Shown here piece by piece: positions 2,111 through 57,691 of a stretch of DNA of 64,000 bases. The DNA is from Malania oleifera (Eukaryota; Streptophyta; Magnoliopsida; Santalales; Ximeniaceae). How positions within the stretch are numbered: position 1 is the first letter of the stretch; every line of letters begins with the position of its first letter. A program made the position numbers and the translations under genes. The DNA is taken from NCBI RefSeq assembly GCF_029873635.1, contig NC_080423.1:104699773-104763772 (forward strand), given 5' to 3'. The notes under the pieces are model-generated. The model was not told where the DNA came from and made no database searches. It was given only the letters and a program-made list of their open reading frames with translations.

Positions 2111-2692
2111 TGTAACGTCCTGCTAATAATTTTATCATTTTTTTTCTTCTTATAAATACTATGAAATTCGACTGCTCCGATACTTTCTAATTAATATAAA
2201 ACTTTCAACCTAAGTAGCAGGAAGTTGAATATATACAAAAACATATCCACACATATATTACAATACCAGAGTGTCAAGCATTCCTCAAACTGTACAAACA
2301 CAACTATTCTCCAAAAATATACCCTACTGAAACTAGGAACATACAAAATAACCTCCCAAAAAACTCACTCTATTGTCAAGGCAGCACTGTAGCCCCTCTA
2401 CCTGCGAGCCTGATCTGCTCACCTAGTTGGATCACCTAAAAAATATTTAACCACTGGGATAAGACAAAGCTCAGTAAGACGATATATGCTATCGTTAGTG
2501 TGTGGCAAATGAGCTACATGCTTGTAAAATATGACTTAGAAAATACCATAAATATGAGAACTAAGAAAACTTGTGTACCTGCTGCAATATAAATCATACC
2601 TATGTTATTTAACATAAAGTGATTTTTCTGGATATTCAATTCATAACACTTCTAATATCTATAGGTATGTCTATTTTCTATAAATTTGATCA

Positions 2693-2761
<69 letters not shown>

Positions 2762-4054
2762 AAATTTCCCTGGATGGATAACTGAGGTCATGATTTAACC
2801 CCTCATGACAGGATTGTGCGGCCTGTAGGCGGGACCTAACTTGGTTGGCTGACCAGAGTAAGTCAACTGAACTCCGACAGTCAGATTGGCCCTCTCAAGC
2901 CATATCTGATGGGGAGTCTGTCCACAACATAGGCACGATCGACTTCTAAATACCACATACTATCTAAGTAATGTGGTTGCACTCTGAATTTGAATATAGC
3001 TATGGTACCGAGCTCTACTGATTGATCCGGTCCATTAGGGTCTGATACTATATAGGTAGCTGATATCTCTAAAATACTGTTTTTACCTTGATGTTAAAAT
3101 AACCATAACCCCGTAAAATTTATTTGAAAATCTGAATCACTAACTGAATATCTGGTTTCTGTATAACTGAATAGTTGTCTAAATATCTGAGTGTCATGGT
3201 ACTGAAATCATGATATTCTGAAATTGCTGAAAACATATATTTCTAAATATACTGTACAATTTCTATAAACATATAAATTCCATTCTATTTCTGCTAATAT
3301 GTTGTAAACATAGTGTTCATAAATTGTATAAATACTGTACTATTATCAACTCATGCCACACAAATAAATATTAATGTTATCAGGCTCCGAAAACTATATA
3401 TATAATCTAAATAATAATTTGATAAAAACATATAATTTGTACTGAAAACATAATAAGTTTCCGAACATAGCATATTTTCCTTACCTGATTCCTTCTAAAA
3501 TCCCCTATTGAGACTGGTCCTACACCCGCAGGGTTCTCCACTCAACACCCTAAAAACCATATATCTCAGAATAAAATATCACTATTTCTTTGACTATTAC
3601 ATTTCCTACAACTGCTGGAAAGCCTAATTTGGAACAAAAGACCTTACCTTGAATATGGGATGAAATTCAACTCAGTCCCACCAACGATCCGCTCCGGCAA
3701 ATCGGAGATAACTTTCCCAGGAGCGTCATGGTGGCCTTAGATAGTCGATCCGGCGAGAAACTGGGTCGGGATCGAAGAGAGAATAGGGAGAAACCGTAGA
3801 GGAGAGAGAGAGAAAGAGAGAGAGAGAGAATTTTGCTGATAATTTTGTTAAAAATCCGAGATTAGCACTATTTATACTATGGGCTTCATCGACGAGCCAC
3901 GTCACCTCGTAGACAAGACCAAGAAGGGGGTTCATCGACGAATGCCTTTTCCTTGTCGACGAAATTCAGAACTTGGAAAAACAACCTCTCAGTATCTTCT
4001 TGTCGACAAAACATGTCCTCGTCGATGAGATCCTCATGCCCTAAATAATTTACA
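2111..4054 (-). repeat. 3' LTR of the gypsy element
   Basis: This 1.94 kb repeat matches 9156-10416 plus 12722-13477. It contains a (TACA)/(TA) microsatellite near 2690-2755, a TATA-like 'tataaat' (minus strand, about 3870) preceded by several GTCGACGA palindromes (about 3890-4030), and a GA/CT-rich leader at 3800-3830. It begins TGTAAATT on the minus strand and ends CGTTACA. Confidence 0.85.
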
Positions 4055-9152: not shown

Positions 9153-9735
9153 AACTGTAATGACTTGCTAATAATTTTATCATTTTTTTGCTTCTTATAA
9201 ATATTATGAAATTCTACTGCTCTGATACTTTCTAATTAATATTAAACTTTCAACCTAAGTAGCAGGAAGCTGAATATATACAAAAACATATCCACACATA
9301 TATTACAATACCAGAGTGTCAAGCATTCCTCAAACTGTACAAACACAACTATTCTCCAAAAATACACCCTATTGAAACTAGGAACATACAAAATAACCTC
9401 CCAAAAAACTCACTCTACTGTCAGAGCAACACTGTAGCCCCTCTACCTGCGAGCCTAATCTGCTCCCTAGTTGGATCACCTGAAAAATATTTAACCACTG
9501 AGATGAGACAAAGTTCAGTAAGACGAAATATGCTATCGCTAGTGTGTGGCAAGTGAGCTACATGCTTGTAAAATCTAACTTAGAAAATACCATAAATATG
9601 AGAACTAAGAAAACTTGTGTACCTACTGCAATATAAATCATACCTATGTTATTTAACATAAAGTGATTTTTCTGGATATTCAATTCATAACACTTCTAAT
9701 ATCTATAGGTATGTCTATTTTCTATAAATCTGATG

Positions 9736-9805
<70 letters not shown>

Positions 9806-10416
9806 TAACTGAGAAATTTCCTTGGATGGATAACTGAGGTCATGATTTAACCCCTCATGACAGGGTTGTGCGGCCTGTAGGCGGGACCTAACCTGGTTGG
9901 CCGACTAGGGTAAGTCAACTGAACTCCGACAGTCAGATCAACCCCCTCAACCCATATCTGATGGGGAGCCTGTCTACAACATAGGTACGATCGACTTCTG
10001 AATACCACATACTATCTAAGTAATGTGATTGCACTCTGAATTTGAATATAGCTACGATACCGAGCTTTGCTGACTAAATCTGGTCCATCAGGGTCTGATA
10101 CTATATAGGTAGCTGATATCTCTAAAATACTGTTTTTACCATGATCTTAAAATAACCATAACCCCGTAAAACTTGTCTAAAAATCTGAATAACTAACTGA
10201 ATATCTGGTTTCTATATAACTGAATAGCTCGGCGTCATGGTATCGAAATCATGATATTTTGAAATTGCTAAAAATATATATTTCTGAATATAATGTACAA
10301 TTTCTATAAACATATAAATTCCATGCTATTTTCTGCTAATATGCACTAAACATAGTGTTCATAAATTGTATAAATACTATACTGTACTGTTATCAACTTA
10401 TGCCACACAAATAAAT

Positions 10417-11280: not shown

Positions 11281-12721
11281 TCATTTGATTTATGGAAAAT
11301 GTATATGATTATATATATATATATATATATGTCTTATATTTGCAAAATATAGTGAAAATGATTGTATGTTGAATATGTGAAAAATTTACTGTGTGGCATG
11401 AGTAAAAATGTTGTGAAACGCTGTTTTTAGGGAATGTGGATGATATGGATTTCTATGATGGAAAACCGGAGAACAGGCCAAGATGTTTTACATATATATG
11501 GATGTGATTTGCCGGCGTATGGGCCGTGCTATGTGATTTGCCGGCGTACGGGCCATGCTATGTGATTTCCCAGCATACAGGCTGTGCTATGTGGTTTTCC
11601 AGCGTACGGGCTGTGCTATGTGATTTGCCGGCGTACGGGCCGTGCTATGTTAAAATGTGTAATACTGGCGTACGGGCCGATGATTTTCAAGGTACACGTA
11701 TATATATATATATATATATATATATGTAAATGATATGATCGATGTGAAAATGATTGATATGAGATATCTATATATCACGATTTTAGTATATGTATATGAT
11801 ATCAGAACCTGGTTGGCTTGGTTTAGGCTAGCACTTGCACGGTACCGTTGCTATATGTCCATTGTCCTCGTGATCATGATATCTGTGTTAACACCGCTAT
11901 ACGGAGTGGTGTGAGATTGGATGGTCGATGTGGTTATGTTCGAGGAGTGTGCTGTTATCGCCCCTAGTGTACGAACCAGTCTGGGTAGACCCATCGGACC
12001 TACAGACTAGACTATCAACTTGGCAGTGGTCAGCCAACCATTACCAGGTCCCGCCTTCGGGCCACACAACCCAGTCATGTGGGGGTAATACATGACAACA
12101 GCCAGCTAACCTACCAGGATTGTTTTATGTTATTATTATTATTATTATGACATGAGTAATGATATGTTATGAAAATGCAGTAGGTTCTACCATGTTGATT
12201 TATATATATATGTTTTCCCAGATTTGATGAAACAGTACTAAATGTGTTATATATATGATATATGTTGAACACGAATTTCTCATGTTGCCACACACTAGTA
12301 TTAATTTATTTCTCTTACTGAGAGGTGTCTCACCCCTAAATTTCATTAACTTTTCAGGAGCCCCAAATAGGAGAGCGGGAAAAGCCCCGCAGAATTAGTG
12401 TTGGTTATCTGCCCTTTTTGAAGGGTAAGCTTTTGGTAGGGATAGTATGTTTTGTGGGAATTGTCCCTAGATTCATTTTTGGGATGTATATATTGAGAGA
12501 TAGTGTTTGTAGTACTATGGTATGTGTTATGCACATTATGATGAGATGTATATGATTTTATACTTTCTGCTACATAGGCTTCTGCTGTATGTTTTGTTAT
12601 ATCCCTGGTACCCACGAGTCCAGGTGGATGGTGACCTGCTGAGCTGGATGTAGAGCATGTGTTATTGATATGTTTAAAATATATATATATATATACACAT
12701 GAAAATAAATAGATTGTGACA
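10417..12721 (+). mobile_element. Solo LTR of a related gypsy family, nested in the 5' LTR
   Basis: The insertion begins TGTAACGACCC and ends TTGTGACA. It is flanked by a perfect 5 bp duplication TAAAT at 10412-10416 and 12722-12726. No primer site or coding region is present, so it is a solo LTR of about 2.3 kb. Its leader ('caccatgacactcctgg', then 'ctggagcggatc') is similar to that of the surrounding LTR and of the solo LTR at 14855, which makes the three sister families. It carries seven TTCGTCGACGAA-like palindromes (10497-10698) just upstream of a TATA-like 'tttataag' near 10705, and a 29 bp tandem repeat. Confidence 0.88.
11504..11648 (+). repeat. 29 bp tandem repeat, five copies
   Basis: Five consecutive copies of a 29 bp unit starting 'gtgatttgccggcgtacggg' fill 145 bp inside the solo LTR, with a few substitutions. 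A diverged relative of the array ('gcgcagatgtcg', 'gcgtagatgccg') lies at about 15865-15945 in the other solo LTR. Confidence 0.9.
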
Positions 12722-13477
12722 TAAATATTAATGTTACCAGGCTCTGAAAACTATATATATAATCTGAATAATAATTTGATAAAAACATATAATTTGTACT
12801 AAAAACATAATAAGTTTCCTAGCATAACATATTTCCCTTACCTGATTCCTACTAGAATCCCCTACTGAGACTGGTCCTACACTCGCAGGGTTCTCCACTC
12901 AACACCCTGAAAACCATATATTCCAAAATAAAATATCACTATTTTTTCGACTATTACATTTCCTACAACTGCTGGAAAGCCTAATTTGGAACAAAAGACC
13001 TTACCCTGAATCTGGGATGAAATTCAACTCAATCCCACCAACAATCTCCTCCGGCAGACTTGGAGAGAACTTTCCTAGGAGCGTCGTGGTGGCCTTAGAT
13101 CGTCGATTCGGCGAGAAACTAGGCCGCGATAGAAGAAAGAAGAGGGAGAAACCGTAGAGGAGGGAGGGAGGGAGAGAGAGAGAGAGAGAGAGAATTTTGA
13201 GAATTTTGCCGATAATTTTGTTAAAAATCTGAGATTAGGACTATTTATACTATGGGCTTCGTCGAAGAGCCACGTCACTTCGTCAAAGAGGCCAAGAAGG
13301 GGGTTCGCCAACGAATACCTTTTCCTCGTCGATGAAATTCATAACTTGAAAAAACAACCTCTCAGTATCTTCTCGTTGACGAAATGTGTCCTCATGGATG
13401 AGATCCTCATGTACCCTCGTCGACGAATCCCCTGGTTTCGTCGACGAGGCCCTGAATAATTTTCTTAGGTTATTACA

Positions 13478-19213: not shown

Positions 19214-22200
19214 ATGTGAGTACATGATATCCTGGAAAAAGTTCGTGTTCTTTGTTCTTTGCTTTTGTGGGCATCGTTTGTTAAGAGAATCGAGAGTAAA
19301 ATTGCATTAACTTTAGCTATTCGAAGGAAGAAAAAAAAACTTGCGTGATGCCAAGACAGGCAGTTGTCGATGTTCTTCGCTCTTTGTAGTGATAATTTTG
19401 TGTTAATTTTGTTAAATGGATCTGTCAGGTCCCAGGACGATTTAGCAAGGGAAGCTATTAGGCACGCTCTGAAGGCCCTTCGCAAGCGCCATCTGCTTGA
19501 GGAAGGAGCACATGGTCCCGCTTTCATCGCTCTCTCCAGGCCCCTCGTTTCACAGGTTCATCCTCCACCTCCTCTCGCTTGTTTGTCTGTCTAGATTTGG
19601 ATATTGTTGTAAAAAGGGTGGTATCGAGTGTACTTGGAGTAGCTATGTTGCATTAAAAAACAAACATTCCGGAAATTTTTAGCACCTAAGTGCGAGAAAG
19701 CACTCTCAAAGTCCTAGCCATACAGTAGCTGATTTTTTTCTCTTAATGTGGGAAGGCAACATGGTGAAGTTCAAATTTTGGAAATAGTATTGTTGCTGCC
19801 AAATATTTAACGGCTTTCTCGTTCCTGATCACGATCACCTGAAAAGGAACAAATAATAATGACTTGGAGGACCTAGGGTCTATCCCGGGGATCAATGCCT
19901 AAGTTAGGAACTGTGGGAGGCTCTAGGTTGCAACAGTAAATGTGAATGAGTGAGAATGAACTTTACCTCTCCCTATGACCCCCTTTTTATAGTAATGAAG
20001 GCAAACCCTCCTTCAGCTTGACATTCATGAGGTACCTTTATGTCTAGGGGATTACAAGCAACTCATGAGTTGCAAGTAACTCATGGGCGGTTTATGTAAG
20101 TCATCAATTGCAGTCTCTATAACAGCACCAGGGATTATTTATTGTTTAGTGGGAGTTATGCAAGACATCAATAGTAGTTCTCTTGTGACCGTACCATTAA
20201 GCTTAGGGGGGTTATAGGTAACTTAAGGGCGGTTACGTGAGACATCAAATGTTGGTCTTATAACTGTTCAACTCTATGAGTGTTCTTATCAATTTTGGGT
20301 GTATTAGTTGCCCACTCAAATACTCTCGAATGTTCGAAACAGGGTTTTGAGAGTTATAATTCGAACTAGTTCCTTAAATAACCAATAAAGGTCAATTCCA
20401 ATTAATTCCGGCCCCATCCATGCAAGTAGGCCTTTTAGTCGAGGTTTATTTGATAATCAGCTCAATCTGAGCCAGGTCCTCCCCGAATTGGCTCAGTCCG
20501 AGCTGATCAGTGTTTTTACCTTATCTGTTCTATACCTCTGCTTGATTTGAGCAGCATGCTTTGTGATTTCTTAGATTAAATTTTATCTGCCTTATGAGCT
20601 GTGCTCATCAGTTGGATCGGTTTTTCGAGTCTCATGAGCGGTGCTCATTAATGGACCATTACGAGTGAGTCGTGCTCACTCCTTTGTGCCTCATAAGTTG
20701 TGCTCATCAAATGGGTAAGTTTTTAAGGCCTTATGAGTTGTGCTCATTATATGGACCATTACGGGTGAGCTGTGCTCACTCCTTTGTGCTTCATGAGCTG
20801 TGCTCATCAAGTGGGCAGGTTTTTAGGGTCTCATGAACTATGCTCATCATATGGGCCATTACGAGTGAGCCGTGCTCACTCCTTTGTGCCTCATGAGCTA
20901 TGCTCATTAAGTGCGTAGGTCTTTAGGGCCTAAGGAGCGGTGCTCATCAGATGGGCCATTGTTGGTCTAGGTATGTTGATCCACGCCGTTGGGATTTGCA
21001 TTATTGTGATTCGTGCCATTGGGGTTTCACGCCATTGGGGTTCGCGCACCGTGAATCTATAGGTTGCTTCCTTCCCTTCCTTGGCCGCTTCATCCAGGTC
21101 CCTCAAATTTTCCCTTTTTAGATTGGTCCGACCCCTTCTTGTGGTCATGATCAAGGATAGAAAACCTCCCATAGGTTCCCACAAACGGCCCCAACTGTTG
21201 CTGCCAAAAATCGAATGGCTTTCACGAATCATTCCTCGATCATGACCACCTGAAAATGAACAAATAAGAATGGTTTGGAGGACCCGGGGTGTACCCTGAG
21301 GGATCACTCCGATGCCTAATTTAGGAACCGTGAGAGATTCTAGGTTGCAACAGTAAATTTGAATGAGCGAGAATGAGCTTTACCTCTCCTTATGACCTCC
21401 TTTTTATAACAGTGAAGGCAAACTCTCCTTCAACTTGACATTCTTGAGGTACCTTTATGTCTAAGGGGTTACAAACAACTCATGAGTTGCAAGTAACTCA
21501 TGGGCGGTTTATGAAAGCCATCAATTGCAGTCTCCATAACCGCACCAAGGATTATTGATTGTTTAGTGGGAGTAATGCGAGACATCAATAGTAGCTCTCT
21601 TGTAACCGTACCATTAATTTAGGAGGGGGGAGGCTATAGGTAACTTAAGGGCGGTTACGTGAGACATCAAATGTTGGTCTTATAACTGTTCAACCTACAT
21701 CCAAAATTGATAGGAACACTCATATGGTTGAACAGTTATAAAACCAACATTTGATGTCTCACGTAACCGTCCTTAAGTTACCTATAACCCCCTTAAGCTT
21801 AATGGTACGGTTACAGGAGAGCTACTATTGATGTCTCGCATAACTCCCATTAAACAATCAATAATCCCTAGTGTGGTTACGGAAACTGCAATTGATGGCT
21901 TACATAAACCGCCCATGAGTTACTTGCAACCCATGAGTTGCTTGTAACTCCTTAGACATAAAGGTACCTCATGAATGTCAAGCTGAAGGAGAGTTTGCCT
22001 TCACTACCATAAAAAGGGGGTCACAGGGAGAGGTAAAGCTCATTCACATTTACTGTTGTAACCTAGAGCCTCCCACAATTCCTAATTTAGGTATCAGAGT
22101 GATCTCTCGGGTACACTATGGGTCCTCCAAGCCATTCTTATTTGTTCCTTTTCACGTGATCGTGACCACGGAACGATTCGTGAAAGCCGTTCGATTTTTG

Positions 22201-25200
22201 GCAACAACAAGTATTTTCAGTGCACAAGGTAATACAGGGTGTTTCCTGTTTTTGGCTGTTAAATGAGTGTTTGTATGTAGAATACTGCAACCTCACCTGG
22301 TATGGTTTTTTAGAGGATTTCTGTTTGTGATTTATTTTTCCCCTGGAATCATATTACATTCTATTGTCCGACACTTTGAAGGGATTTTAGTTTAATTTGA
22401 ACGTCCAAGCTAGCAAGAATAAAAAATTTGAAATAGTGAGGTTTTTGTTAAATGCAAGGAAGGGGTGATTGGATTTACATGCTTGAACATCAAAGCTATT
22501 AAGAAAAGAATTGCAGTATCTCCATCTTTGACCAATTGTTAATGTCCTATACCAACTGCACTAAATTGCGTTCGAGGATTTTTCAGGGCCATTTAAGCCC
22601 TATTAGAGGCTCAAATTTTGTTCAAACCTAATTTAACATGTCATTCTCATTGCCTTAGGCATTGGTCTACGTTGCAATTGAGCAAACCAGGTTGGACATA
22701 TTCTCTGCATTTTACCCTTGTTTTGTGCTAGTTACAGCTTCTCATGATTGCTATTATTTTTACTTGATTGTCCTACAATTTTTAGTGCAAAATATGCTTA
22801 CCTGTACTTTCCATTATGGTGAGCAATTCACGACTTCTTCTCTACTGTGTGCTACATACATGGTAACTTTGTTTCTTTAACTAGTAGGAGGCACGCGCAT
22901 TGCCTGTGATATTTAAAAAAAAAAAAAAAACTAATTTACTGAAGATATGGTTGGATGTAGATTTTCCTTATCATTTTATTATATCTTCTTGCTACTTAAT
23001 GAAATATAAGAACAATTTTACTATCAAATAACTATGAATATCCTCTCATGTAAATGATTATGTACCCCTTTAGTTGTATAACGAAACAAAGAGAGTTTTT
23101 AAGAAAAAATTAAAAAGGAAAGACACAATAAACAAGTATATATAAATGTGCGCAAATGTGCACATATGGATCATTTTAATCAAACACATCATAGAAGTCA
23201 ATTTATCATGAAAATATATGCCTACGACTTCATGTTTTCAATCGTGATAACCATTAAATTAATTCGAATCAATGGCCTAGCATGCAAAACATGTGGTGTG
23301 GTGTAGATTTGATGCATTTGGTATGAAATAACTACTATGAAAGTACCATTGAAAATGTATTGACCAAAATGATTTTTGAAAAATACAAAAATTTAATCAT
23401 CACTCAAATTTTTTTTTAAAAATTGCCTAAAATAACAAAAACTACTAGAAAATTAGGACGTGTTAAATAAGATTCACTAAGAGTCCTTCAAGAAAAAAGG
23501 GGGTAAATTGCATTTTGAATGTAACTTTTTTTCCCTTAATGATCCAAGAATTGTTGTGCTTGGTGACATAGATGGATTTGAAGAGTAAGTTGTGCACATG
23601 AAATCATGAATTTCACAAAAATCTCATTTTTTATTTAAGAAAAAAAAACTCTATCAAGTTGTAAATCAATAGAGGAACAAAAATTAAGGCACACGAAAGA
23701 TAGTCACTTGAATTTCAACATTTGTAATTTCCAATTGATTGATATGCTTACAAAAGAGACTTACATAAAGAGGCTTGGAAAATCTCTTTCTTTTTAAAAC
23801 CTTAAGAGAGAATAATGATTGTTGTCAAGCTAAGGATTCTAAATTTATATGGTAGTTCTTAGTCTAATTAAAAAGACATGATGATTGACTCAAATATAGA
23901 AACTTTGGAAGGAAACAATTTCTTGGATTTAAATTAAAAGACTTAGCGAAGAGGATGTGTGAGGTGCTTGTTGGTACCATTTGTACTACTCAGAGTGCAT
24001 TCCTAGAGGGGAGGCAAATAGTGGATGTTGTTGTTAGATTACCACTTTTTCTAAAAGATTAAGTTGTTAGGCTGTGGGACAACAATGTATATCAAGCTTT
24101 AACATTCCCCTGCATGTGTAGCTTGATAGCACGTGGAGAGATAAGATACAATAAATAACACCCATTACAGGCAACATACAATAAATGAGGGCAAATAGAC
24201 TAGAACCTAGGACCTTCTGGTAAGTAGCTTTGATACCATGTTAGATTACCACTAAAAGCTTAAGTTATTAGGAATATGTATCAAGCTTTAACACTCCCTT
24301 GCTTGTGCAGCCCAACAGCATGTGGGAAGATAAACACACGATAAATAACACTCATTACAGGTTATATGATAATATTTTTTTAAACACCACACCATAAAGC
24401 AGGTAACAAGACTAAAACCTAGGACCTCTTGGTAACCAACTTTGATACCATGTAAGGTTATCACTTTGCCCTAAAGCTTAAGCTATTACATTAGGGCCAA
24501 CAGTGTATATCAAGCTTTAACACTCCCCCCCCCCCTCCCCCATGCAGCATGACAGCATGTGGAGTGATAAACACACGGTAGATAACACCCATTATAAGGG
24601 ATACAATAATTTTTTAAAAACCGCACAATAAATGCAGGCAGCAAGACTAGAACTCAAGACCTCTTGGTAACCATCTTTGATACCAAGTTAGATTACCACT
24701 TTACTTAAACGTTTAAGCTATTAGATTGCGGTCCAACAATGTGTCTCAAGCTTAATACTCCCCCGCACGTGCAACCCGATAACATATGGAGAGATAAACA
24801 CATGATAAATAACATTCGTGATAGGTAACACGATAAGTTTTTGAACATCACACAATAAACACGGGCAACAAAACTAGAACCTCCTGGTAACCAACTCTAA
24901 TGCCATGTTAGAGTACCACTTTACTTAAAAGCTTAAGCTATTAGGTTGTCAGACAACAATGTATATCAAGCGTCAACACTTCCCCGCACGTGCAACTCAA
25001 AAGCATGTGGTTAGATAAACACAAGATAGATAACATCCATCACAAGGAATTCAATAATTTTTTAAACACCACACAATAAATGAGGGCAACAAGACTAGAA
25101 CCCTGTTCAGACTTGGATCGGAAGAAGAATAGCTTGGCTCAAGACCGAGCTCAATTCATTTCGAGCTCCAAAAATTAAGCTCGAGCTTGACTCAAGCTCA

Positions 25201-28200
25201 ACTCAGTCTAAACCACAAACCAAACAAATTGGAGGCCAGCAACTTAATTTTTAAAATTTTAAAGGCCTTTCAATGTTAGTTAGGCTTAAAATAAAGTATT
25301 AAAGCCCATTAGTAAACATGTCCAAATATAATTAAAAATACCCAAGGAAAACCCACAAGAAAAGAGGCCCACAATTTTAATAAAACATTTAGCAGGCCCG
25401 CAATGGAGCTGGCCGGCAGCCATGGGAAAGGTGGAGGAAAGGGGTAGTTGGGCAAGAGCTTTTAGGCGTTGTGGATTTCTGATGTGGTACAAGAGCATGT
25501 AGGTGTAATTTTTTGCCTCTCTCCCTATGCTTTCTCCCCACTTCGGCTCCATATCCCACATTGGAAGATTGAACTCTTCCTAGGTCTTGCCTCTTCTATA
25601 TTAGCTTCCTTTCCTGCATTTGATTAATGAATAAATAAACTAATAATTATTTGTTATTGTTGAGTTTATTACTATTTGATTATTGTTGATTTGTGTGAAG
25701 CAATAGTTAATGAACTTAAATAAATAAAATAAAATATTTTAAGAATTAAATTTAAAATCAAGCTCATTACTGAGCCTAATCGATCTACTCACGAGCCTAA
25801 AAATTGAGTTTAAGAATCACTTTAGATAATAAACGAGCCTGAACGAGCTCTTACTGAGCTGAGCTCTCGAGCCACTCATGAGCGGCTTGGTTCGTTTGCA
25901 ACCCTAACCTCCTGGTAACGACCTCTAATACCATGTTAGATTACCGCTTTACCTAAAACTTAAGTTTTTAAGTTGTGGGCCAACAATGTATATCAAGCTT
26001 TAACACTACCCCACATGTGCAGCCCAATAATTTGTGGGGAGATGCACATGATTGATAACGCCCATTTCAAGGAATACAATAATTTGTTTATTTTTTAAAA
26101 AAAACATCACACAATAAACATAGGCAACTAGACTAGAACCCATGAGCTCTTGGTAAAGAGCTAAGATACCATGTTAGATTACCACTTTATCTAAAAGTTG
26201 AAGCTGTTAGGTTGTGGGCCAACAATGTGTATCAAGCTTTAACGGCTATACTTGTGGCCAATGAGGTGGTGGAGGATGTTTGTAGGAAGAAGAAGAGGGG
26301 TTTTGCCTTTAAATTAAATTTCATGAATGCCTATGATAGAGTAACTTGGAGCTTCTTGGATAAAGTCCTTTAGAGAGAGGGTTTTGGCAAGCGTTGGTGT
26401 CAGTGGATTAGGGGCTGCTTGTCTAATGTGTGGTTCTCGGTGATTGTTAATTGTGAGCTGAAATCTTGGTTTGGAGCCTCTAGGGCATTAGACAAGGTGA
26501 GCCTATATCCCACTTTTTCTTTGTCCTTGCAACTAATGTGTTGTGGAGGATGGTGGAGAGGGCTGTGGAGAGGGGGTTGGTTAAAGGTCTAGAAGTAGGG
26601 GAGAGGGAGTGGTGGTTTCTCATCTTCAGTTTGTTGATGACACCATTTTCTGCCTTGACGATCAGATTCATAGCTCTTTAGGAGAATTTTGGGTGTTCTT
26701 CAAATTTTTCATGGGTTGTCGGGCCTTAAATTAATTTGGGAAAGAGTGGATTAGTAACTTTGAATGTGCTCATGGAGCAAGTAGGGAAAGGGCCACTAAA
26801 GTGGGGTGTGGCATTCTGGATTGGCCTATGACCTACTTAGGGGTCCCCTTGGGGGCTAATTCTAGAGCAGCAGATTTTTGCAATCTGGTACTAGAAAGGG
26901 TGGCTAAAAGTCTAGCTAGTTGGAATAGGGGGGTGGAATAACCTTGATCCAGGCTTATCTTTCTAGCATTCCATTATATTTCTTGTCTGTATTAAGGATT
27001 TTGATGGGGATTGCAAACAAACTTGAGAGAATCATGAAATGCTTTTTGTGGTTTAGTAGGGGGGATCATAGGGACTACTTAGTTAGCTAGGGTGAGGGTT
27101 TGTAGGTCAAAAAAAGAGGGAGGGTTGTGTCTAGGGAAGTTGGTGTATAAAAACATGACTCTTTTAGCTATAAATGGCTATGGTGTTTCCCTCTAGAAGA
27201 ATCTTACCTTTGGCATAAAACTTATAAGAAGTAAGTTTGGGTTGGATGAGAATGGGTGGGATACCAATATTATTTTAAGATATTCTTTGGGTTGTCTGTG
27301 GAGGTCCATTTCTCAAATTTATCCTTCTTTCATCCCTCACACTAAATTTGAGGTGGGGAGGGGCTCTCAGATCCATTTTGGAAGACCCTTGTTGGGTAAT
27401 GCATCCTTATCCACTTCATTCCCTTGTCTTTTTCGACTGACCTCTGGGAAAAATAGAGCTATATCTTTCTTTCTTTTGGGGATTTGAGTAGTCCATTGGT
27501 TTCCTAGAATATCCATTTTAGAGGACCTCTTAATGAAAGGAGTTGGTGGAGCTGCCTTCTTTGTTATCTCTATTGAATGGGGGTAATCTTTCTTCGGGGA
27601 GGGATGTTTAGTCTTGGTCTTTGGGTCAATCAGGAGTGTTTTCTTGTAAATCTATTTTTTGAATTTTTGACTCACTCCAATTCTTCTTTCCCACTCTAAC
27701 GTTTCATCTAAAAGGCTAAGGCTTGACCAAAATTAAGGTTTTCACTTGGTTGGTTGTGCTCAATAAAATTAATACTATAACTTGCTGCAAATTAGGAGAC
27801 CTTTGGGCTCTCTCCCCTGATGTATGCGTGCTCTGTTACAAAAATTCTGAAATGGCTTCTCATCTTCTTTTGCAGTGATTTCTAGAAGTATTCGGAATAT
27901 GCTTTTTGGTATTTCTGGAGAGAGTGGGTTTGCCCTTCTTCGGTTGATGAACTGTTAGCTATTTCCTTCACAGGCTTTGGTAAGAGAAAGGATGATAAGG
28001 CAGCCCCATGGACGTGTGGAATACTTGCAGTTTTATGGGGGTTATGGTTGGAGTGTAATGCAAGGATTTAATGGGAAGAAATTAAATTGGGTTCTGGTTT
28101 GGGATAAAAATTCAGTATTTGGCCTCATGGTGATGATTTGGGTTTTTTCAGAGGAATTAATTAGTTTCAACAAGTTACATATAGATTGGAGGAATATTTT

Positions 28201-31200
28201 GGCCTGTTGTTTTTTCCCCTGGATTGCTCCAGGCCTTTCTTGGGAGATATCTCATTCTCCCTCGTGTAAATTCTCTTCCTTTTAATGAAATATTCTTTTT
28301 CTGTTTAAAAAAAAGAAAAAGAAAAAGACTGGTGTGGTACAGAACTCTAGTTTTACATGACTACTATTCTGAACTCTGAATTTATTGTAATTCTGCACCC
28401 AACTTCTCAATAAAATTGAGATTTTTAAAATTGAGAATTGTTATTACAAAGTTTCTTGTCCATCTAAGGTAAAAAATAATAAAACTGAGGAATTTGAAAA
28501 ACAGATCAACTCCAGACAAATTGAAAAGAATGCAATTGGCTGATGAGCCTTTCTAGTCATGTGCATTATTTTATCATAGGAGACAAATTCATTCCATAGT
28601 TGTAAGACCAACCATACTTCATGTACCATCTAATGATACTAAAAAGGCATAATGTCCATGCCCAGAGCATAATCTGAATTCAGGCGTAGACAGATGATGC
28701 TAGACATTCTGAGGTTTAGTCATTTTAAATTCATAACTGAACCTACAAGTGTAGCATGGATCTAGTTGATAACTACAAGGATAAGAAGGAGGCTACAGTA
28801 GAATGGATCTAGTGGACCACTACAAGGGTACGAAAGAGGCTACAGTAAACATGGTTTGAGTTTGTGGAGGAATACTTGATTTTCTGCCTCAACAATAAGC
28901 ATGAAATTCTGCATAAGCATGAACCTTGACAAAGTGGAATGGTAAGGACATAACCATCAATCCCTAGTGGTAAACTATATATTATGTATAGACTAAGCTA
29001 GAAATATAATACCTCATAATTATAAGTCCTTTAAAAACATCATGAAGATGAAATATTTTCATTGCATTATAAATAACACCACAAGTGTGCATTTCCTTTT
29101 CATGATATAAATGAGTTTTCTATATCAGCAATGCGAAGGCCAAATAAGATTCAGAAATTCACCAATCAAATCTAGAGCAACTAAAACTGAGAAGCTGCTA
29201 TTACCTCGTGCTTCCGTATTCAAAGTGTCAACACCATGACAAACAGTGTCAGAGCCATTCTGCAAACCAACAATTCACACTCATGTAAGTGAAGTTCTTT
29301 ACACCATTTATTCCTCAATACCTATATGACAGCATATATACTAGTGTCCAACTATATTTTTGTATGAATGAGATTAAGAAAAAAATCAGAAAGGGAACCT
29401 GAGTAGTAAACAGATCTATTGCAGAATAGTGTTCAAACATGAAAATATTAGGATCACTTACAGCTGCCTCCAATAGAGCCCGCTCGATCTCTCTCCCAGT
29501 CAGATCAGCAGCATGAACTATTCTGTGGTGAAGAGTGACCCCCTACCCTTGCAAGGTGCTGGTAGTGTTTCAAATTTTCTGGTGGTTTGGTTTTTATGAA
29601 CTTAAATTCAGGTAGCAGATTCAGGTTGTTAGTGCAGTTTCAAGTTTTTCCAAACTTGCAAGGTGCAAGTTCCCCATCTTCCCCAAAATAAAATGACACA
29701 CCCATAGCAATCAATTCTCTAATTCATTCAGGTCCTTCTGTGCATACCACCTAGAGAAGCAGAAAAGTTGAGGAAAGGTGATGGTTAAGCTAGAGAAATG
29801 ATAGAACATGCTCAAATATATTTGACATTTCTAGCACGTAACAACAACTACGGAAGCAAAATGTTGCATTTTCCAATGTCATAAGAAATCAGAATTTATA
29901 TAACAAAGTTTGGAAATGCCAATTTTCAAAAGAATGTAAATAAACTCTTGAAGAATTATACTCTAAAGAGTCCACACTGACCAGATGAGAATGGGAGGAT
30001 TCAAAAATATTGCCTGGAAGATGACTGCTTCTAAGCAGGATTTCTGGGATGCCTGGATATTGACTTGACTAGTTATAACAGATCTACTAACTGCCTCTAG
30101 CATGAAATATCTGTTCCATATAGAATGCAAGACCGATTAGATATTAACAAAGTAACTTGGCACTTGTGAAATATGACCAACTTCCTGACAACAATAAAGA
30201 AGTATCAATCTCTTACTCTTTAGATAAGATGATCTCTAACAGCATCAAAAATCTAAGTCATATCAGTTTGAGTGATTCTTATGGCTCCCTACTTAGGAAA
30301 ATCTTAAGATTTTCATTGAACCTTTGTTTCATAGAATTAGTCAAAACATTTTAATATATTATTTTTATTCTGTAAAACTGAAAATGGTACGAAGTCTCTT
30401 CATATAATATCATTTTTGTATAAGACTTATATGTATGTGCGTATGCTGTCTCGCAGGAGTCGTAATAAAGATGATATCTTATTATTACAACCTGTGACTT
30501 GAATCAATTGTAGTTGTTCCATTAATTAGAATATTTCCCCTTATTATAGAACATTAATAGAATTATTGTCCACCAAGGCTAAACTGTGCGCTTAATCATA
30601 AGTCTGCAAACCATGTGATTGGCTAAGTAGGGTGCACCACCAATATTATTTGGGCTGGTATCATTTTACCAAACTGTGGCTTAAATTTTTACAGTTAAAC
30701 AACCTGTGTTTGCACTGTCTTGTACTGTTATATGTCATTACACACCAACAAGTGCTATTCAATTCATTTTAGTCACAAAATTATGGAAAAATTGAAACAA
30801 ACAGCCTTTAGATATTTATTTATAAAAAATATCTAACTGAAATTTTGTCAAACACCTACAGCACATGAATCATAAGATTGCATAATAAGATAAAGTATTG
30901 AAACTTTTTAAAAATAATGCAGCAGGGGACCATGATAAAACAGACTTTGTGAACAAAATATTAAAGAAGTGATAAAACACAATCCAAAATAGAAATCAAA
31001 CCCAAAGTGTCTGCAGCTAAAATTTGGTGAAACACAGATGTTAAGCTCAAAGTCAAGGGTGTATCTGATTCTCAATTAACATTATACATTTCAGAGAAAA
31101 AATCTGTGTTCAAATTGACATGCAATCTCTTTTAAAAGCCAACTACCAATAGTCTTGGAACTAAAGGCCTCCATGTTTTCTGAACAGTAGATCCAAAAGC

Positions 31201-37200: not shown

Positions 37201-39219
37201 TGGATGTGTATTTAGTGTGCTTGAATGTGAGAAAGTGCCTAATCTCCCATCCTGCCACAAGTTAGTGATCACTTCATGAGCTGTGTTTGTTACACTAAAA
37301 AATAGTGATGTCCATTATGTGAATTTAGATATTCAGTTCTCTTAGTCTTTTTAACTGAAGTTTCAATATTTTCTCCCCACCCCCTCTCTCATTTTATAGT
37401 TATCTTCTCACAAGTTAGTGATCACTTCATGAGCTGTGTTTGTTACACTAAAAAATAGTGATGTCCATGATGCCAATTTAGATATTCAGTTCTCTTAGTC
37501 TTTTTAACTTAAGTTTCAATATTTTCTCCCCACCCCCTCTCTCATTTTATAGTTATCTTCTCACAAGTTAGTGATCACTTCATGAGCTGTGTTTGTTACA
37601 CTAAAAAATAGTGATGTCCATGATGCCAATTTAGATATTCAGTTCTCTGTCTTTTTAACTTAAGTTTCAATATTTTCTCCCCACCCCCTCTCTCATTTTA
37701 TAGTTATCTTCTCACAAGTTAGCGATCACTTCATGAGCTGTGTTTGTTAAACTAAAAAATAGTGATGTCCATGATGTGAATTTATATATTCAGTTCTCTT
37801 AGTCTTTTAAACTGAAGTTTCAATATTTTCTCCCCCCCTCTCTCTCATTTTATAGTTATCTTCTCATAGGTGGTTGTAAAGTCAAAAAATGAAATTTTGC
37901 AATGTCTCGTTTAAGTTTTGAAATTTAAACCATGCATTTTACCATCAGTTTGAATGTAAATAACAAATTAATCAAGTTGATGGATTCCAAAATCTAAGAA
38001 TGGATTGCTCCCCACCCTCTTGTCTCTAGAACCTTTACCTGCATGTCGATGGTTGGGTGGGTGGGTGGGTGGGTGTATATGTTGTTTGATTAAATTCCAC
38101 ACTTTTGATTCTATGAATGTGTTCACATTAATTTTTTTTTGTGCAAACAATTTACCTACAATAACAATTGAACTATTGTACTGTAAATATTTTTAGGCTA
38201 ATGCACTCTATGAGGACATGATTGATCGGTTGAAAGCGAGCAGTATAGAGCAGCTTGCTCAGCAGCAAGTGGATGGTGTGATCCGCCGAAGTGAAGAAGG
38301 TGCTGAGTACTTCGTGGAATCAACTATTCCCACAGCTTGTGAGCACAAGATTACTGCCCATGAAGGTGGATGTGCTTCAATTTTGTTTGAGCACAACTCA
38401 GGCAAATTGATTAGTGGGGGACAGGACCGTACTATTAAAATGTGGGATACAAACACGGGTTCATTAAGCCGTACTCTTTATGGTTGTCTGGGCTCTGTTT
38501 TAGATCTCACTGTTACTCATGATAACAAATCAATCATTGCAGCTAGCAGCTCAAACAACTTGTACGTGTGGGACGTAAACTCTGGTCGGATTCGTCATAC
38601 TCTCACTGGCCACACTGATAAAGTCTGTGCTGTAGATGTGAGTAAGGTTTCAAATCGTCACATTGTGAGTGCAGCTTATGATCGCACAATAAAAGCTTGG
38701 GATTTACAGAAAGGTTACTGCATCAACACAATTATCTTTCCCAGCAACTGCAATGCTCTTTCCTTCAGTGCAGATGGGCAGACCATTTGCTCTGGTCACG
38801 TTGATGGGAATCTTCGGCTGTGGGATATCCAGACAGGAAAGTTACGAAGTGAAGTTGCTGCTCATTCGCTTGCCATTACTTCAATATCCCTGTCTAGAAA
38901 TGGAAATATAATATTGACAAGTGGGAGAGACAACTTGCACAATTTATTTGATATGCGATCTCTGGAAGTTTGTGGCACTTTAAGGGCAAATGGGAACAGA
39001 GTGGCATCTAATTGGAGTCGGTCTTGCATCAATGTGGATGACAACTATGTTGCTGCTGGATCTGCTGATGGATCTGTCCATATTTGGTCATTAAAGAAAG
39101 CTGGTATAGTTTCCACTCTACGTGAACATACTGCTTCTGTCCTGTGTTGTTCATGGAGTGGTCTTGGGAAACCTCTAGCTTCCTCCGATAAGAATGGAGT
39201 TATTTGTCTATGGGCATAA
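19214..39219 (+). CDS. ATG16: Autophagy-related protein 16 (WD40), five exons
   Basis: ATG16 joins the ATG12-ATG5 conjugate and directs ATG8 lipidation to the forming autophagosome membrane. Coding exons: 19214-19215, 19429-19555, 31613-31794, 31880-32075, 38197-39219. They total 509 codons plus stop, the length I recall for Arabidopsis ATG16. Residues 1-43 hold the N-terminal ATG5-binding-like helix (HALKALRKRHLLEEGAH), about 44-185 a coiled coil (EWKEKAESLEVELQQ to DRWMLQKMKDAER), and about 215-509 a seven-bladed WD40 propeller (repeats ending KMWD, YVWD, KAWD, RLWD, HIWS, CLWA). All junctions are GT-AG and keep frame. The ATG is read as AT|G across intron 1, giving MSQDDLAREA, close to other plant ATG16 starts. 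No breaks are seen. Confidence 0.93.
19429..19555 (+). CDS. ATG16: ATG16 exon 2 (N-terminal region)
   Basis: The acceptor is tctgtcag and the exon ends cacag before gttcat. It encodes SQDDLAREAIRHALKALRKR and the LLEEGAHGPAFIALSRPLVSQ region that in other ATG16 proteins contacts ATG5. The first base completes the initiator ATG begun in exon 1. Confidence 0.88.
19791..22209 (-). mobile_element. Short non-autonomous LTR element with a third, inverted LTR
   Basis: Three related LTR copies are present. A is 19791-20318 (minus sense), B is 21196-21694 (minus sense) and C is 21695-22209 (plus sense). A and B bracket about 880 bp without recognisable genes. Next to B, on the minus strand, is TTGGGGCCGTTTGTGGGAAC, a primer-site-like sequence common in gypsy-type elements. 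C is joined head-to-head to B, and both lack a short piece of the LTR edge at the junction. The outer ends of A and C are TGTTGCTGCC and GGCAACAACA, flanked by a perfect 5 bp duplication AGTAT (19786-19790 and 22210-22214). The whole palindromic block therefore looks like one insertion. It is a LARD/TRIM-like fossil. Confidence 0.75.
20575..20960 (+). repeat. 100 bp tandem repeat inside the short LTR element
   Basis: The marker 'gg(a/g)ccattacg' recurs at 20653, 20753, 20853 and (as gggccattgt) 20953, an exact 100 bp period. Each unit contains two or three copies of the shorter motif 'catgagctgtgctcat', giving a nested periodicity. Confidence 0.88.
22215..23929. other. ATG16 intron 2 sequence with no recognised element
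   Basis: The segment is AT-rich with an A-run at about 22916-22931. No gene, splice signal or repeat is recognised. Confidence 0.4.
24032..26243 (-). mobile_element. Tandem array of a TRIM/SMART-like mini LTR retrotransposon
   Basis: Seven LTR copies of about 72 bp (24032-24104, 24239-24293, 24451-24522, 24686-24757, 24906-24978, 25934-26005, 26172-26243) alternate with six internal segments of about 134-166 bp. On the minus strand each LTR runs TGTTAAAGCTTG to AATCTAACA. It is followed at once by a TGGTATCAGAGC-like site (tRNA-Met primer site) and preceded by a purine run such as GCGGGGGAG. No coding capacity exists. The array interrupts the RT of an L1 LINE, and its fifth internal segment carries an 800 bp insertion. 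Adjacent copies share one LTR, which fits unequal recombination between LTRs. Confidence 0.85.
25105..25905. mobile_element. 800 bp insertion in the TRIM array, hAT-MITE-like edge
   Basis: The TRIM internal sequence breaks at 25104 and resumes at 25906. The hexamer aaccct is present at both edges (25099-25104 and 25900-25905). The right end reads inward, on the minus strand, as 'agggttgcaaacgaacc', a terminus style common in plant hAT-type MITEs. Both ends contain many gagct/agctc stretches. A 'tcccacattgg' block occurs at 25555. No transposase is seen. Confidence 0.5.
28331..29200. other. ATG16 intron 2 sequence with no recognised element
   Basis: The segment is AT-rich. A local near-duplicate, 'atggatctagt(t/g)ga(t/c)(a/c)actacaagg', occurs at about 28757 and 28802. 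Nothing coding is recognised. Confidence 0.35.
29203..29535 (-). other. Two antisense exon-like segments of an unknown gene
   Basis: On the minus strand, about 29527-29465 is preceded by an acceptor-like ccaccacag, encodes IVHAADLTGREIERALLEAA and ends at a gtaagtg donor. The segment 29258-29204 follows an acceptor ggtttgcag, encodes NGSDTVCHGVDTLNTEAR and ends before gtaata. The two join in frame. I do not recognise the protein. It could be a captured gene fragment or part of a real gene lying antisense in the ATG16 intron. A third possible exon ('WYAQKDLNELEN', near 29740) lacks a good donor. Confidence 0.3.
29536..31612. other. ATG16 intron 2, distal part
   Basis: No gene or repeat is recognised. 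The segment is AT-rich with an A-run at about 31240-31255. The last bases form the acceptor of ATG16 exon 3. Confidence 0.4.
31613..31794 (+). CDS. ATG16: ATG16 exon 3 (coiled coil)
   Basis: The exon encodes GSEWKEKAESLEVELQQCYK through LTQMR. It is rich in Glu, Lys, Gln and Leu with heptad spacing typical of the ATG16 dimerising coiled coil. It ends with a split Arg codon (AG|G). Confidence 0.9.
31880..32075 (+). CDS. ATG16: ATG16 exon 4 (coiled coil)
   Basis: The acceptor is atcctgcag. The exon continues the coiled coil (DECSQLKEMLDEKIKALELV ... ENKMLVDRWMLQKMKDAER) and ends MNE before gtatta. The motif ENKMLVDRWMLQKM is strongly conserved in plant ATG16. Confidence 0.92.
32495..32675 (+). 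repeat. Imperfect direct repeat with ATT-rich microsatellite
   Basis: The block 'acagttcctatgaatgact' followed by 'attaggatttcttttgaagg' (about 32499-32562) recurs as 'gcagttctgatgaatgact' followed by the same 'attaggatttcttttgaagg' (about 32607-32671). The copies are separated by an (ATT)n run. Each copy is preceded by a pyrimidine/AT stretch and an AG, like an intron acceptor. Confidence 0.75.
32735..34840 (-). mobile_element. RTE-type LINE, antisense, degraded
   Basis: On the minus strand the C-terminal block (33256-32882) reads KLKGKSYKTAIRPAMLYRSK ... RWFGHLQRRLHNAPMKKIE, a hallmark of plant RTE LINEs. The N-terminal RT linker (34213-33974) reads KEARKDAKKTVSKAKHRSF and DIFKLAKAKKRKSKDL. 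The 3' end has the typical 'cctcacctagtgggactt' and a (GTT)n tail near 32740-32760. Sequence between these blocks matches the RT core in several frames, so it is dead. The 5' part beyond about 34840 is missing. Confidence 0.82.
34960..37185 (+). mobile_element. L1-type LINE (RT and zf-RVT), 5'-truncated
   Basis: The plus strand gives 'VDGVLFVEERDVRRGICSFY' (about 35000), 'EEDIVLALKSCNRDKAP' (35166), an RT core with 'GLRPGDPLSPFLFILVMEVL' and a downstream FADGT in place of the usual FADDT (35617-35985), the 'QKGGLGLRSLLTFNKALLGK' block (36010), and a zf-RVT region ('FTVKSYYDLLCC', 36520). It ends in an A-rich tail at about 37159-37185. Frameshifts and stops occur throughout. Confidence 0.82.
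37259..37868 (+). repeat. Tandem repeat, four copies of about 152 bp, in ATG16 intron 4
   Basis: The motif 'gttag(t/c)gatcacttcatg' starts at 37261, 37413, 37567 and 37718. Each unit also contains 'aaaaaatagtgatgtccat' and a pyrimidine-rich 'tctccccaccccctctctc' followed by 'attttatag'. The copies are over 90% alike by eye. The array ends about 330 bp before exon 5. Confidence 0.92.
38197..39219 (+). CDS. ATG16: ATG16 exon 5 (linker and WD40 propeller)
   Basis: A single 1,023 bp exon encodes the last 340 residues, from ANALYEDMIDRLKASSIEQL to the stop TAA. The WD repeats are recognised by GH/D...WD endings: GGQDRTIKMWD, SSNNLYVWD, AAYDRTIKAWD, GHVDGNLRLWD, SGRDNLHNLFD, GSADGSVHIWS, SDKNGVICLWA. 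The frame is open throughout. Confidence 0.95.
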   Translation, partial: ANALYEDMIDRLKASSIEQLAQQQVDGVIRRSEEGAEYFVESTIPTACEHKITAHEGGCASILFEHNSGKLISGGQDRTIKMWDTNTGSLSRTLYGCLGSVLDLTVTHDNKSIIAASSSNNLYVWDVNSGRIRHTLTGHTDKVCAVDVSKVSNRHIVSAAYDRTIKAWDLQKGYCINTIIFPSNCNALSFSADGQTICSGHVDGNLRLWDIQTGKLRSEVAAHSLAITSISLSRNGNIILTSGRDNLHNLFDMRSLEVCGTLRANGNRVASNWSRSCINVDDNYVAAGSADGSVHIWSLKKAGIVSTLREHTASVLCCSWSGLGKPLASSDKNGVICLWA

Positions 39220-52434: not shown

Positions 52435-52887
52435 TGTTGAGATTGTAGGTGTGGAGTTGCCAACAGCCGCACCAGCCCAGTCGCTAACTTGGACATTGAA
52501 GACCGGCGGCCACCTACTCTGCAGACTATGCTGAAACTGCAGCCACCGTCTTTGAATTTTTCCCCTCCCTGTGTATATATATATGTGCGTGTGTGTGCAG
52601 CAGTGTGTCGTGAGTGGTGTGAGAGATGTGTATGTAGTGTGAGTGCTGTAAGCGTAGAGTCTTGTGTAGTGTAGAGAGTTGAGGAGTGAGAGAGAGAGAG
52701 AGAGAGAGAGAGTTGAGTAGAGCAGTGTGGCTACTCCTCTGTAATTCTTCTCCCAGTATAGTGTAGTGGTGTGTGCTCCCGTGGACGTAGGTCGATTCGA
52801 TCGAACCACGTAAATCCGCTGTTCCAGTATGGATGTGTTTGATTTTTCTTCATGTGTGATTATTACTCCAGGTTTATCACAAACAAT
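52435..52887 (+). repeat. 5' LTR of the copia element
   Basis: A 453 bp LTR with a (GA)n run (52686-52712) and a TG-rich stretch (52580-52610). It ends CACAAACA two bases before the primer site. Confidence 0.88.
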
Positions 52888-52889
52888 TG

Positions 52890-52902
52890 GTATCAGAGCC
52901 AA
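52890..52902 (+). other. Primer binding site of the copia element
   Basis: TGGTATCAGAGCC is complementary to the 3' end of initiator tRNA-Met and lies two bases after the 5' LTR. Confidence 0.9.
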
Positions 52903-53518
52903 GTTGGAGTAGAATCGCCAGATCAGAGAAAAATTCCCGAATTTTGAGCCTCTGTCCAGTAGCTCAAAATTTAATTTTGAGGCTACCATCGAACTCCTTT
53001 CGTTCAAACGAAACTAACGGTGGCAACCGGAGCTCCACACGACCACAGACGAGACCTTACGCGCTGCCAACGATTAGGGGATGTTCCCACGCCCCTGCAC
53101 GCGCCGACGGAGACACCGCAGGTCCTTGCACGGGCAGCCACGCGCAGGAGAACAGACGGAGGAAGAAGACGCTCCACGTCAGCCCACGCCACGTCAGCGC
53201 CACGTCAGCAGTGGGTCCCACAGTCACCCGCCAATAGGTGGGCCCCACAGTTCCACGTCAGCAGTGGGCCCCACATGCCACGTCACCAGACGGTGCAGTT
53301 AACGACGTCACTAACGCCGTCAAAGAATATTCCGTCTGTGAGAGGAATATTCCATTAAAGTTGACCATGTTTGACCAAGAGTTTGACCGGGCTTTTTGAA
53401 GCCATTTCGGGTTCGGTTTTCAAACAACTTAAGTCATTTATAGGGTTTTTGGTTGTTCCGGATCCAACTGTGCTGTCTGATTGTGCTAATTCTATCTCTA
53501 AATTAGCAAATCGAGATG
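52903..53518 (+). other. Leader of the copia element with CCACGTCA-type repeats
   Basis: This is the leader and gag N-terminal region. It includes a GC-rich stretch (53090-53320) with about six copies of a 'ccacgtcagcagtgggccccac'-like unit (shortened here to CCACGTCAGC). Such a block is not usual in TNT1-like elements and may be a captured or expanded sequence. Confidence 0.55.
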
Positions 53519-53578
53519 TCGAAAGAAAAGAGCTCTTAGATCGAGATGTTTGACGACACGAACTTCGATTTCTAGAAA

Positions 53579-54289: not shown

Positions 54290-54359
54290 TAGAAGAAAGA
54301 GACGAGGGCAAAGACAGAAGCAAATATTGCTTCCGAAAATGATGATTTGTTGATCTGCT

Positions 54360-57424: not shown

Positions 57425-57493
57425 AGACAGACATGAGCACATCATTTGCCTATACACTGGTTGAGATGTTGTCTCCGTCTCCAAGTCGGAGAT

Positions 57494-57634: not shown

Positions 57635-57691
<57 letters not shown>

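What the first reader, a model, noticed from the sequence alone, without database searches (positions are those of the whole stretch)
24032..26243. Tandem array of seven mini-LTRs: a multimerised TRIM/SMART retrotransposon
Seven ~72 bp LTRs alternate with six ~150 bp internal segments. Each has a tRNA-Met primer-like site touching the LTR and a purine tract at the other side, all in minus orientation. Such elements normally have two LTRs; this array is a 6-mer with shared LTRs. Copies differ, so the order of amplification could be dated. To my knowledge this specific array is undescribed, although tandem TRIMs are known as a class.
Basis: partly seen in the sequence, partly recalled or inferred. 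Interest (0 to 1): 0.72.

Follow-up and report, generated by a model that had tools for sequence, protein, structure and literature searches.

The report
Tandem array of miniature plant retrotransposons
A stretch of plant DNA holds six copies of a tiny non-coding retrotransposon joined head to tail and sharing their end repeats; it is an old example of a known kind of structure, and related arrays in the same genome give clues to how such chains form and grow.

Summary
The finding holds. Window 24032-26244 is a minus-strand array of seven LTRs (six of 72-73 bp, one of 55) and six internals of 134-166 bp (L7I6). It is not a satellite: 61 of 75 elements annotated at 68 other loci are the plain two-LTR form (~300 bp), and 15 of those 61 have TG...CA ends plus a perfect 5-bp target duplication (0.15 expected from cross-paired flanks). 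The array sits in a LINE reverse transcriptase remnant: removing it plus one 5-mer restores the reading frame, so one integration is the simplest reading (duplication GCTAT, now GTTGT on one side).

The hoped-for order of amplification cannot be read: units share almost no derived changes, so the array probably multimerised at or soon after integration and then stayed frozen. Other arrays differ: L074 carries a 411-bp dimer twice at 98.3% identity, the mark of later unequal exchange.

This is a tandemly arrayed TRIM, described in 129 subfamilies by Gao 2016 (PMC4717578). New member of a known kind. Whether this array integrated as a concatemer or grew by early unequal crossing-over is unresolved.

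The parts
24027..24031 (.). left copy of the target site duplication, GTTGT (decayed)
   Evidence: differs from the right copy GCTAT by two transitions
24032..24104 (-). LTR1 (3' terminal LTR of the array)
24105..24238 (-). internal 1 (private deletion of about 23 bp)
24239..24293 (-). LTR2, shared, internally deleted (55 bp)
24294..24450 (-). internal 2
24451..24522 (-). LTR3, shared
24523..24685 (-). internal 3 (purine tract expanded to a long G run)
24686..24757 (-). LTR4, shared
24758..24905 (-). internal 4
24906..24978 (-). LTR5, shared
24979..25104 (-). internal 5, 3' part (ends in AACCCT, first copy of the direct repeat)
25105..25899 (.). 795-bp insertion of another, unidentified element into internal 5; flanked by AACCCT at 25099-25104 and 25900-25905
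   Evidence: genome search for relatives did not complete
25906..25933 (-). internal 5, 5' part with PBS
25934..26005 (-). LTR6, shared
26006..26171 (-). internal 6
26172..26244 (-). LTR7 (5' terminal LTR of the array; last base G for A)
26245..26249 (.). right copy of the target site duplication, GCTAT; fits the LINE frame
23937..28300 (+). decayed LINE (non-LTR retrotransposon) reverse transcriptase remnant into which the array is inserted; outer limits approximate
   Evidence: translation; RVT_1 E 1.2e-5 (below the curated cut-off) for the joined flanks; frame pieces

Best explanation
The array is a tandemly arrayed TRIM (L7I6). A non-coding, roughly 300-bp LTR retrotransposon, moved in trans by the enzymes of an autonomous LTR element, was primed by initiator tRNA-Met and integrated once into a LINE copy, making a 5-bp target duplication. 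Shown here: element anatomy, dispersed two-LTR copies with TSDs, a LINE frame that closes over the array, no clear later exchange between units. Inferred: trans-mobilisation, priming, and that the six units arose at or very soon after integration. I think an already concatenated cDNA slightly more likely than a quick series of LTR-LTR unequal crossovers just after insertion. The units then decayed independently, and a second element later inserted into internal 5.
For: Two-LTR copies dominate: 61 of 75 elements at 68 loci; perfect 5-bp TSD plus TG..CA in 15 of 61 against 0.15 expected from cross-paired flanks, and 4/5 TSD with TG..CA in 16 of 61 against 1.4. PBS majority TGGTATCAGAGC over the first internal positions of the genomic copies. 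Joining the flanks with one 5-mer kept restores the LINE frame across the junction; the joined 72-aa peptide hits RVT_1 at E 1.2e-5, below the curated cut-off, while the two short pieces alone (42 and 30 aa) hit nothing at E up to 1. Star divergence: in-array LTR mean 0.161 against 0.172 expected for independent lineages (shared path 6.5%, bootstrap 0.5-13%); internals 0.245 against 0.243 (shared -1%, -5 to +4%). Window internals do not form a clade (p-AU 0.044; 0% of 200 bootstrap trees). Arrays of this family with perfect TSDs: L075 CATAG, L076 ATAAT, read by eye from the flanks.
Against: The array's own TSD matches in only 3 of 5 bases (two transitions), and alone would be weak. The LTR shared-path interval excludes zero by a little (0.5-13%), and the blocks LTR2-INT2 and LTR4-INT4 share four rare states (INT columns 116, 122, 132; LTR column 15, also in LTR7), which could be the relic of an early two-unit duplication; but INT4 also shares four rare states with one unrelated locus (L035). 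No autonomous partner was sought. The concatemer step is not directly observed. Relatives were picked by similarity to the queries, so the sample is not random, and INT5 entered the distance comparisons with its 3' part only.
Confidence: 0.82

Rival explanations
1. Stepwise growth in place: a two-LTR TRIM inserted and LTR-LTR unequal crossing-over added units over a long time.
For: The process is visible in this family: L074 (L5I4) carries a 411-bp LTR-INT-truncated LTR-INT dimer twice at 98.3% identity while the two units inside a dimer differ by 24%. L030 internals 1 and 3 form a 100/98-supported pair while internal 2 falls elsewhere.
Against: The window array shows no such pair: the smallest internal distance is 0.209 and the shared path is near zero. 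Growth spread over time should leave close neighbours or a lag pattern.
Confidence: 0.25
2. Heteromeric concatemer: the units come from different TRIM RNAs joined by template switching or by recombination between different elements.
For: Window internals group with different loci in the tree (INT4 with L003 99/84, INT6 with L063 96/84), and one-clade is marginally rejected (p-AU 0.044). Internals of the three-LTR arrays L017, L073, L075 and L076 differ as much (0.185-0.219) as internals of unrelated loci (median 0.185). Transversions too are more frequent between internals (0.056) than between LTRs (0.041) of different loci, so some source diversity is not excluded; L077 and L079 share a gap that looks like a subfamily trait.
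Against: The bootstrap had not settled, and the rare states shared by those pairs are few and all transitions (3 and 2). The ratio of internal to LTR divergence in the window (1.52) is like that of arrays whose internals are clearly close copies (from values: L078 1.5 with its three full LTRs, 0.9 if the truncated fourth is counted; L079 about 1.9; L077 about 2.2), so faster decay of internals can explain the excess.
Confidence: 0.15
3. A satellite that only resembles LTRs.
For: Head-to-tail repeats of about 220 bp, found by Tandem Repeats Finder.
Against: Dispersed two-LTR copies with TSDs, PBS and purine tract, insertion into a LINE.
Confidence: 0.01
4. Fusion of two or more neighbouring TRIM insertions by recombination between them.
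For: Separate TRIMs do lie within 1 kb of each other at L037, L046 and L061.
Against: The LINE frame is continuous across the array once one 5-mer is kept; fusion of separate insertions would be expected to delete the LINE sequence between them.
Confidence: 0.04

Closest known systems
Tandemly arrayed TRIMs (TA-TRIMs), Gao et al. 2016, PMC4717578 (abstract, section 5 part 1, section 8 and passages seen)
   Same: Alternating shared LTRs and internals, TSD around the whole array, L3I2, L5I4 and inverted forms; 129 subfamilies in 35 of 43 genomes; smallest TRIM 233 bp with 52-bp LTRs
   Different: Here L7I6; the family's sequence could not be compared with their 156 families
Wukong TRIM of maize, PMC4528315 (abstract, section 11 part 1, section 20 seen)
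   Same: TRIM with up to seven LTRs in one element; other transposons inserted into some elements
   Different: Wukong LTR 230 bp and internal 72 bp; here LTR about 73 bp and internal about 150 bp; most dated Wukong copies are under five million years old
SMART / FRetro129, PMC3281118 (abstract, sections 5 and 6 seen)
   Same: 292 bp total, 85-bp LTRs, TGT..ACA ends, 5-bp TSD: nearly the same dimensions
   Different: Reported only in grasses; sequence homology not tested
Cassandra TRIM arrays, PMC7215508 (abstract and Discussion seen)
   Same: Long tandem arrays with shared LTRs, up to 12 repeats
   Different: Cassandra LTRs carry 5S rRNA; no 5S match here; Cassandra arrays are described as almost identical units, this one is 20-29% diverged in its internals
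Tandem LTR-retrotransposons of rice, PMC11899658 (abstract, sections 8 and 13 seen)
   Same: Shared internal LTRs, single insertion with TSD; origin by concatemer or unequal recombination left open
   Different: That paper is about LTR-retrotransposon families of rice, among which gypsy elements form tandems more often than copia; here a miniature element

Membership tests
TRIM | two short direct LTRs with TG...CA ends around a short non-coding internal, under 1 kb | tested here: met
   61 of 75 elements are LTR-INT-LTR, mostly 289-303 bp; TG..CA kept in 38 of 61, the rest decayed or not fitted
TRIM | primer binding site next to the 5' LTR | tested here: met
   majority TGGTATCAGAGC in genomic copies; complementarity to the plant initiator tRNA-Met 3' end is recalled, not computed
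TRIM | polypurine tract before the 3' LTR | tested here: met
   GGGGGAG-type tract seen in the sequence at the LTR border
TRIM | 5-bp target site duplication | tested here: met
   15 of 61 perfect with TG..CA against 0.15 expected; the window array itself matches 3 of 5
TRIM | mobilised by an autonomous LTR retrotransposon | not tested
   no partner search was made
TA-TRIM | three or more LTRs sharing internals, inside one TSD pair | tested here: met
   L7I6; LINE frame restored on removal with one 5-mer kept; the TSD itself is decayed to 3 of 5
SMART (FRetro129) | sequence homology to FRetro129 | not tested
   its sequence is not in the text that I saw
Cassandra | 5S rRNA sequence in the LTR | tested here: not met
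   no Rfam match in the window at gathering thresholds; the five-locus search to E 10 listed no 5S match either
Helenus (TRIMp3, PMC10886601; abstract and part 1 of 6 of the text seen) | tRNA-derived sequence in the LTR | tested here: not met
   no tRNA match in the window nor in five loci to E 10; a B-box-like GGTTCTAGTCT lies in the internal, not in the LTR
satellite DNA | occurs only as tandem arrays without insertion hallmarks | tested here: not met

The most novel reading that the evidence does not exclude
The six-unit array integrated as one preformed concatemeric cDNA, possibly of mixed source RNAs, and never exchanged units afterwards, while sister arrays of the same family (L074, L030) visibly grew by unequal exchange. 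One genome would then hold both proposed mechanisms of TA-TRIM origin, told apart by star against lag-patterned divergence.
Probability: 0.4. Interest if true: 0.45.

Novelty: new member of a known kind. Interest (0 to 1): 0.32.

Why it matters
The papers on tandem LTR elements that I saw (PMC11899658, PMC7215508) leave open whether arrays arise during reverse transcription or by later unequal recombination. A family with a frozen star-like seven-LTR array and an array with a 98%-identical dimer repeat lets the two be told apart by the pattern of divergence between units. The structure itself is ordinary for plant genomes.

Tried and rejected
Pol III or tRNA-head reading: the internal just after the PBS has an A-box-like and a B-box-like stretch (GGTTCTAGTCT, in the best conserved window of the internal; the box consensus is recalled), which made me consider a Helenus-like element; Rfam gave no tRNA in the window or in 5 loci to E 10, so this stays a motif resemblance. 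Mosaic (heteromeric) origin: considered because internals diverge more than LTRs; the internal/LTR ratios of other arrays show that faster decay can be enough, but transversion-only distances are also higher for internals, so it is not excluded and is kept as a rival. A fuzzy regex scan of the window was uninformative. The plasmid collection gave no match; the viral-contig pattern scan gave one 18-base hit, L009, with no LTR or internal profile hit. Pfam on single flank pieces gave no reverse transcriptase (one search gave one sub-threshold YhfC match, ignored). Relatives of the 795-bp insert and of the LINE were never obtained, because the genome search did not complete. Of the 54 matches of the junction query I did not fetch several that may also be shared LTRs: C13:62231013 (38-174), C8:54820951 (9-168), C4:79644918 (1-153) and five of the six that end at 158, ten bases or so into the PBS; the sixth lies in L049, where a PBS-like site does follow the LTR.
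Full report
What is there. Reading the region and scanning it with profiles made from its own units gives seven LTRs and six internals, all in minus orientation, from 24032 to 26244. LTRs are 72-73 bp except LTR2 (55 bp, internal deletion); internals are 134-166 bp, the fifth being split by a 795-bp insertion at 25105-25899 with AACCCT on both sides. LTR pairs are 75-92% and internal pairs 71-80% identical. Tandem Repeats Finder and self-BLAST confirm that the repeat is far beyond chance.

Is it a retrotransposon? The window lies in a held 1.49-Gb genome. Three searches of that genome gave many relatives; only the best 40 candidates were scored each time, out of 1454, 2052 and 1651 first-look candidates, so copy number is not known. 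I took 71 loci into the first annotation and dropped three before counting: L042 (the window itself), L067 (same place as L010) and L009 (a viral contig without a profile hit). The 68 left carry 75 elements: 61 LTR-INT-LTR, 9 with one LTR and one internal, 2 lone LTRs, 2 with three LTRs (L017, L043) and 1 with four (L030). Of the 61 two-LTR elements, 15 have TG..CA and a 5/5 target duplication and 16 have TG..CA and 4/5; pairing the left flank of one locus with the right flank of another gives 0.15 and 1.4. Without TG..CA at both ends the test is less informative (8 with 5/5 against 2.2, 8 with 4/5 against 15.4).

How did the array get there? The flanks read as a decayed LINE reverse transcriptase. 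If the array and one 5-mer are left out, the frame runs on as ...LAKRMCEVLVGTICTTQSAFLEGRQIVD-AILVANEVVEDVCRKKKRGFAFKLNFMNAYDRVTWSFLDKVL. That joined peptide matches RVT_1 at E 1.2e-5, 25.5 bits against a curated cut-off of 29.6, so below the cut-off but aligned from residue 4 to 71, across the junction; the separate pieces, of 42 and 30 residues, match nothing. The right 5-mer GCTAT fits the frame; the left 5-mer GTTGT differs from it by two transitions. The simplest reading is one integration with a 5-bp duplication. I could not check an uninterrupted LINE copy, because those genome searches did not complete.

When did it multimerise? In this family the LTRs of one locus differ as much (median 0.10, 80 intra-locus pairs, some of them between neighbouring elements or within arrays) as LTRs of different loci (0.111), so the sampled copies look like one old burst, with some subfamily structure (starred clades; a gap shared by L077 and L079). 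If the window units shared a history inside the array, they should be closer to one another than their distances to outside copies predict. They are hardly so: LTRs 0.161 observed against 0.172 expected (shared path 6.5%, bootstrap 0.5-13%), internals 0.245 against 0.243 (-1%, -5 to +4%). Rare derived states shared per pair average 0.53 among window internals, against 0.23 to 0.42 between each window internal and genomic copies and 0.28 among unrelated genomic pairs. In a tree of 77 internals the six window copies do not group (the bootstrap had not settled), and holding them together is marginally rejected (p-AU 0.044). So the order of amplification cannot be read, and the units probably separated close to the time of the burst. 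A weak contrary hint is that LTR2-INT2 and LTR4-INT4 share four rare states. The outside copies were chosen by similarity to the queries, one of which was part of internal 5, so they are not a random sample.

Other arrays of the family. A query spanning internal-LTR-internal led to eight further stretches, picked from the scored places whose match crosses a shared LTR; L030 was already held, and some further candidates were not fetched (named in Tried and rejected), so the number of arrays is a lower bound. L073, L075 and L076 have three LTRs, L078 four with the last cut short, L074 five, L072 at least four plus inverted LTR pieces on both sides, L077 two LTRs with two internals, and L079 units in both orientations. 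L075 and L076 carry perfect 5-bp duplications around the whole array (CATAG, ATAAT, read by eye from the flanks); L030 and L017 do not (3 of 5). L074 is the telling one: its units 1-2 and 3-4 are a 411-bp dimer repeated at 98.3% identity, with the same truncated LTR twice, although the two units inside a dimer differ by 24%. That is what unequal exchange by two units leaves behind. The window array has nothing like it.

Mechanism. Shown: TRIM anatomy, a LINE frame that closes over the array, star-like decay, an insertion into internal 5. Inferred from the biology of LTR retrotransposons: priming by initiator tRNA-Met and mobilisation in trans. Multimer formation at or just after integration is inferred from the star; a concatenated cDNA and rapid early LTR-LTR exchange both fit, and I lean slightly to the first because exchange in this family left clear traces elsewhere and no clear one here.

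Known or new. Tandemly arrayed TRIMs are described in 129 subfamilies and 35 of 43 plant genomes (PMC4717578, section 8), with seven LTRs in one maize Wukong element (PMC4528315, section 11), up to 12 repeats in Cassandra (PMC7215508, Discussion), and in larger elements (PMC11899658). A TRIM with 52-bp LTRs is known (PMC4717578, passage in section 23), so the LTR here is not the smallest. I did not look for this family by sequence in print: four literature searches were by words only, and supplementary sequence files were not open to me, so whether the family is one of the 156 already listed is unknown.

Noticed in passing
window 25105-25899: 795-bp insertion with AACCCT direct repeats; a 22-nt inverted pair (77%) lies about 35-45 bases inside its two ends (25147-25168 / 25845-25866). 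It carries TCCCACATTGG followed by a TATA-like stretch, a motif recalled from plant snRNA-type promoters. Unidentified.
   Followed up: partly
L074 303-1198: TRIM array with a 411-bp dimer repeated at 98.3% identity and the same truncated LTR twice: the mark of unequal exchange.
   Followed up: yes
L079 430-1342 and L072 317-1320: TRIM arrays with inverted LTR pieces; the LTR core holds a palindrome (AGCTTAAGCT, by eye; seen as overlapping hits on both strands) that may favour such inversions.
   Followed up: partly
L077 and L079: The two internals of L077 and the four full internals of L079 share the same 32-column gap, so a short-internal subfamily seems to exist and to form arrays.
   Followed up: no
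window 2111-4038 with 9156-10416 and 12721-13411: Direct repeats of about 1.9 kb (88-91%), perhaps the LTRs of a large element, the right one interrupted by another sequence.
   Followed up: no
window 52435-57988: Copia-like element (named by eye from the frames): 83% direct repeats at 52435-52869 and 57494-57988 around gag-like and integrase/RT-like frames.
   Followed up: no
window 37256-37866: 153-bp unit in four copies at about 96%, just upstream of an uninterrupted frame at 38197-39219 that looks WD40-like by eye.
   Followed up: no
window 19790-22210: Repeats of about 500 bp at 87%, direct (21196-21694) and inverted (22210-21696), plus a 100-bp tandem at 20588-20960.
   Followed up: no
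internals of the family, first about 45 positions: B-box-like GGTTCTAGTCT lies in the best conserved part of the internal, although no tRNA model matches.
   Followed up: partly
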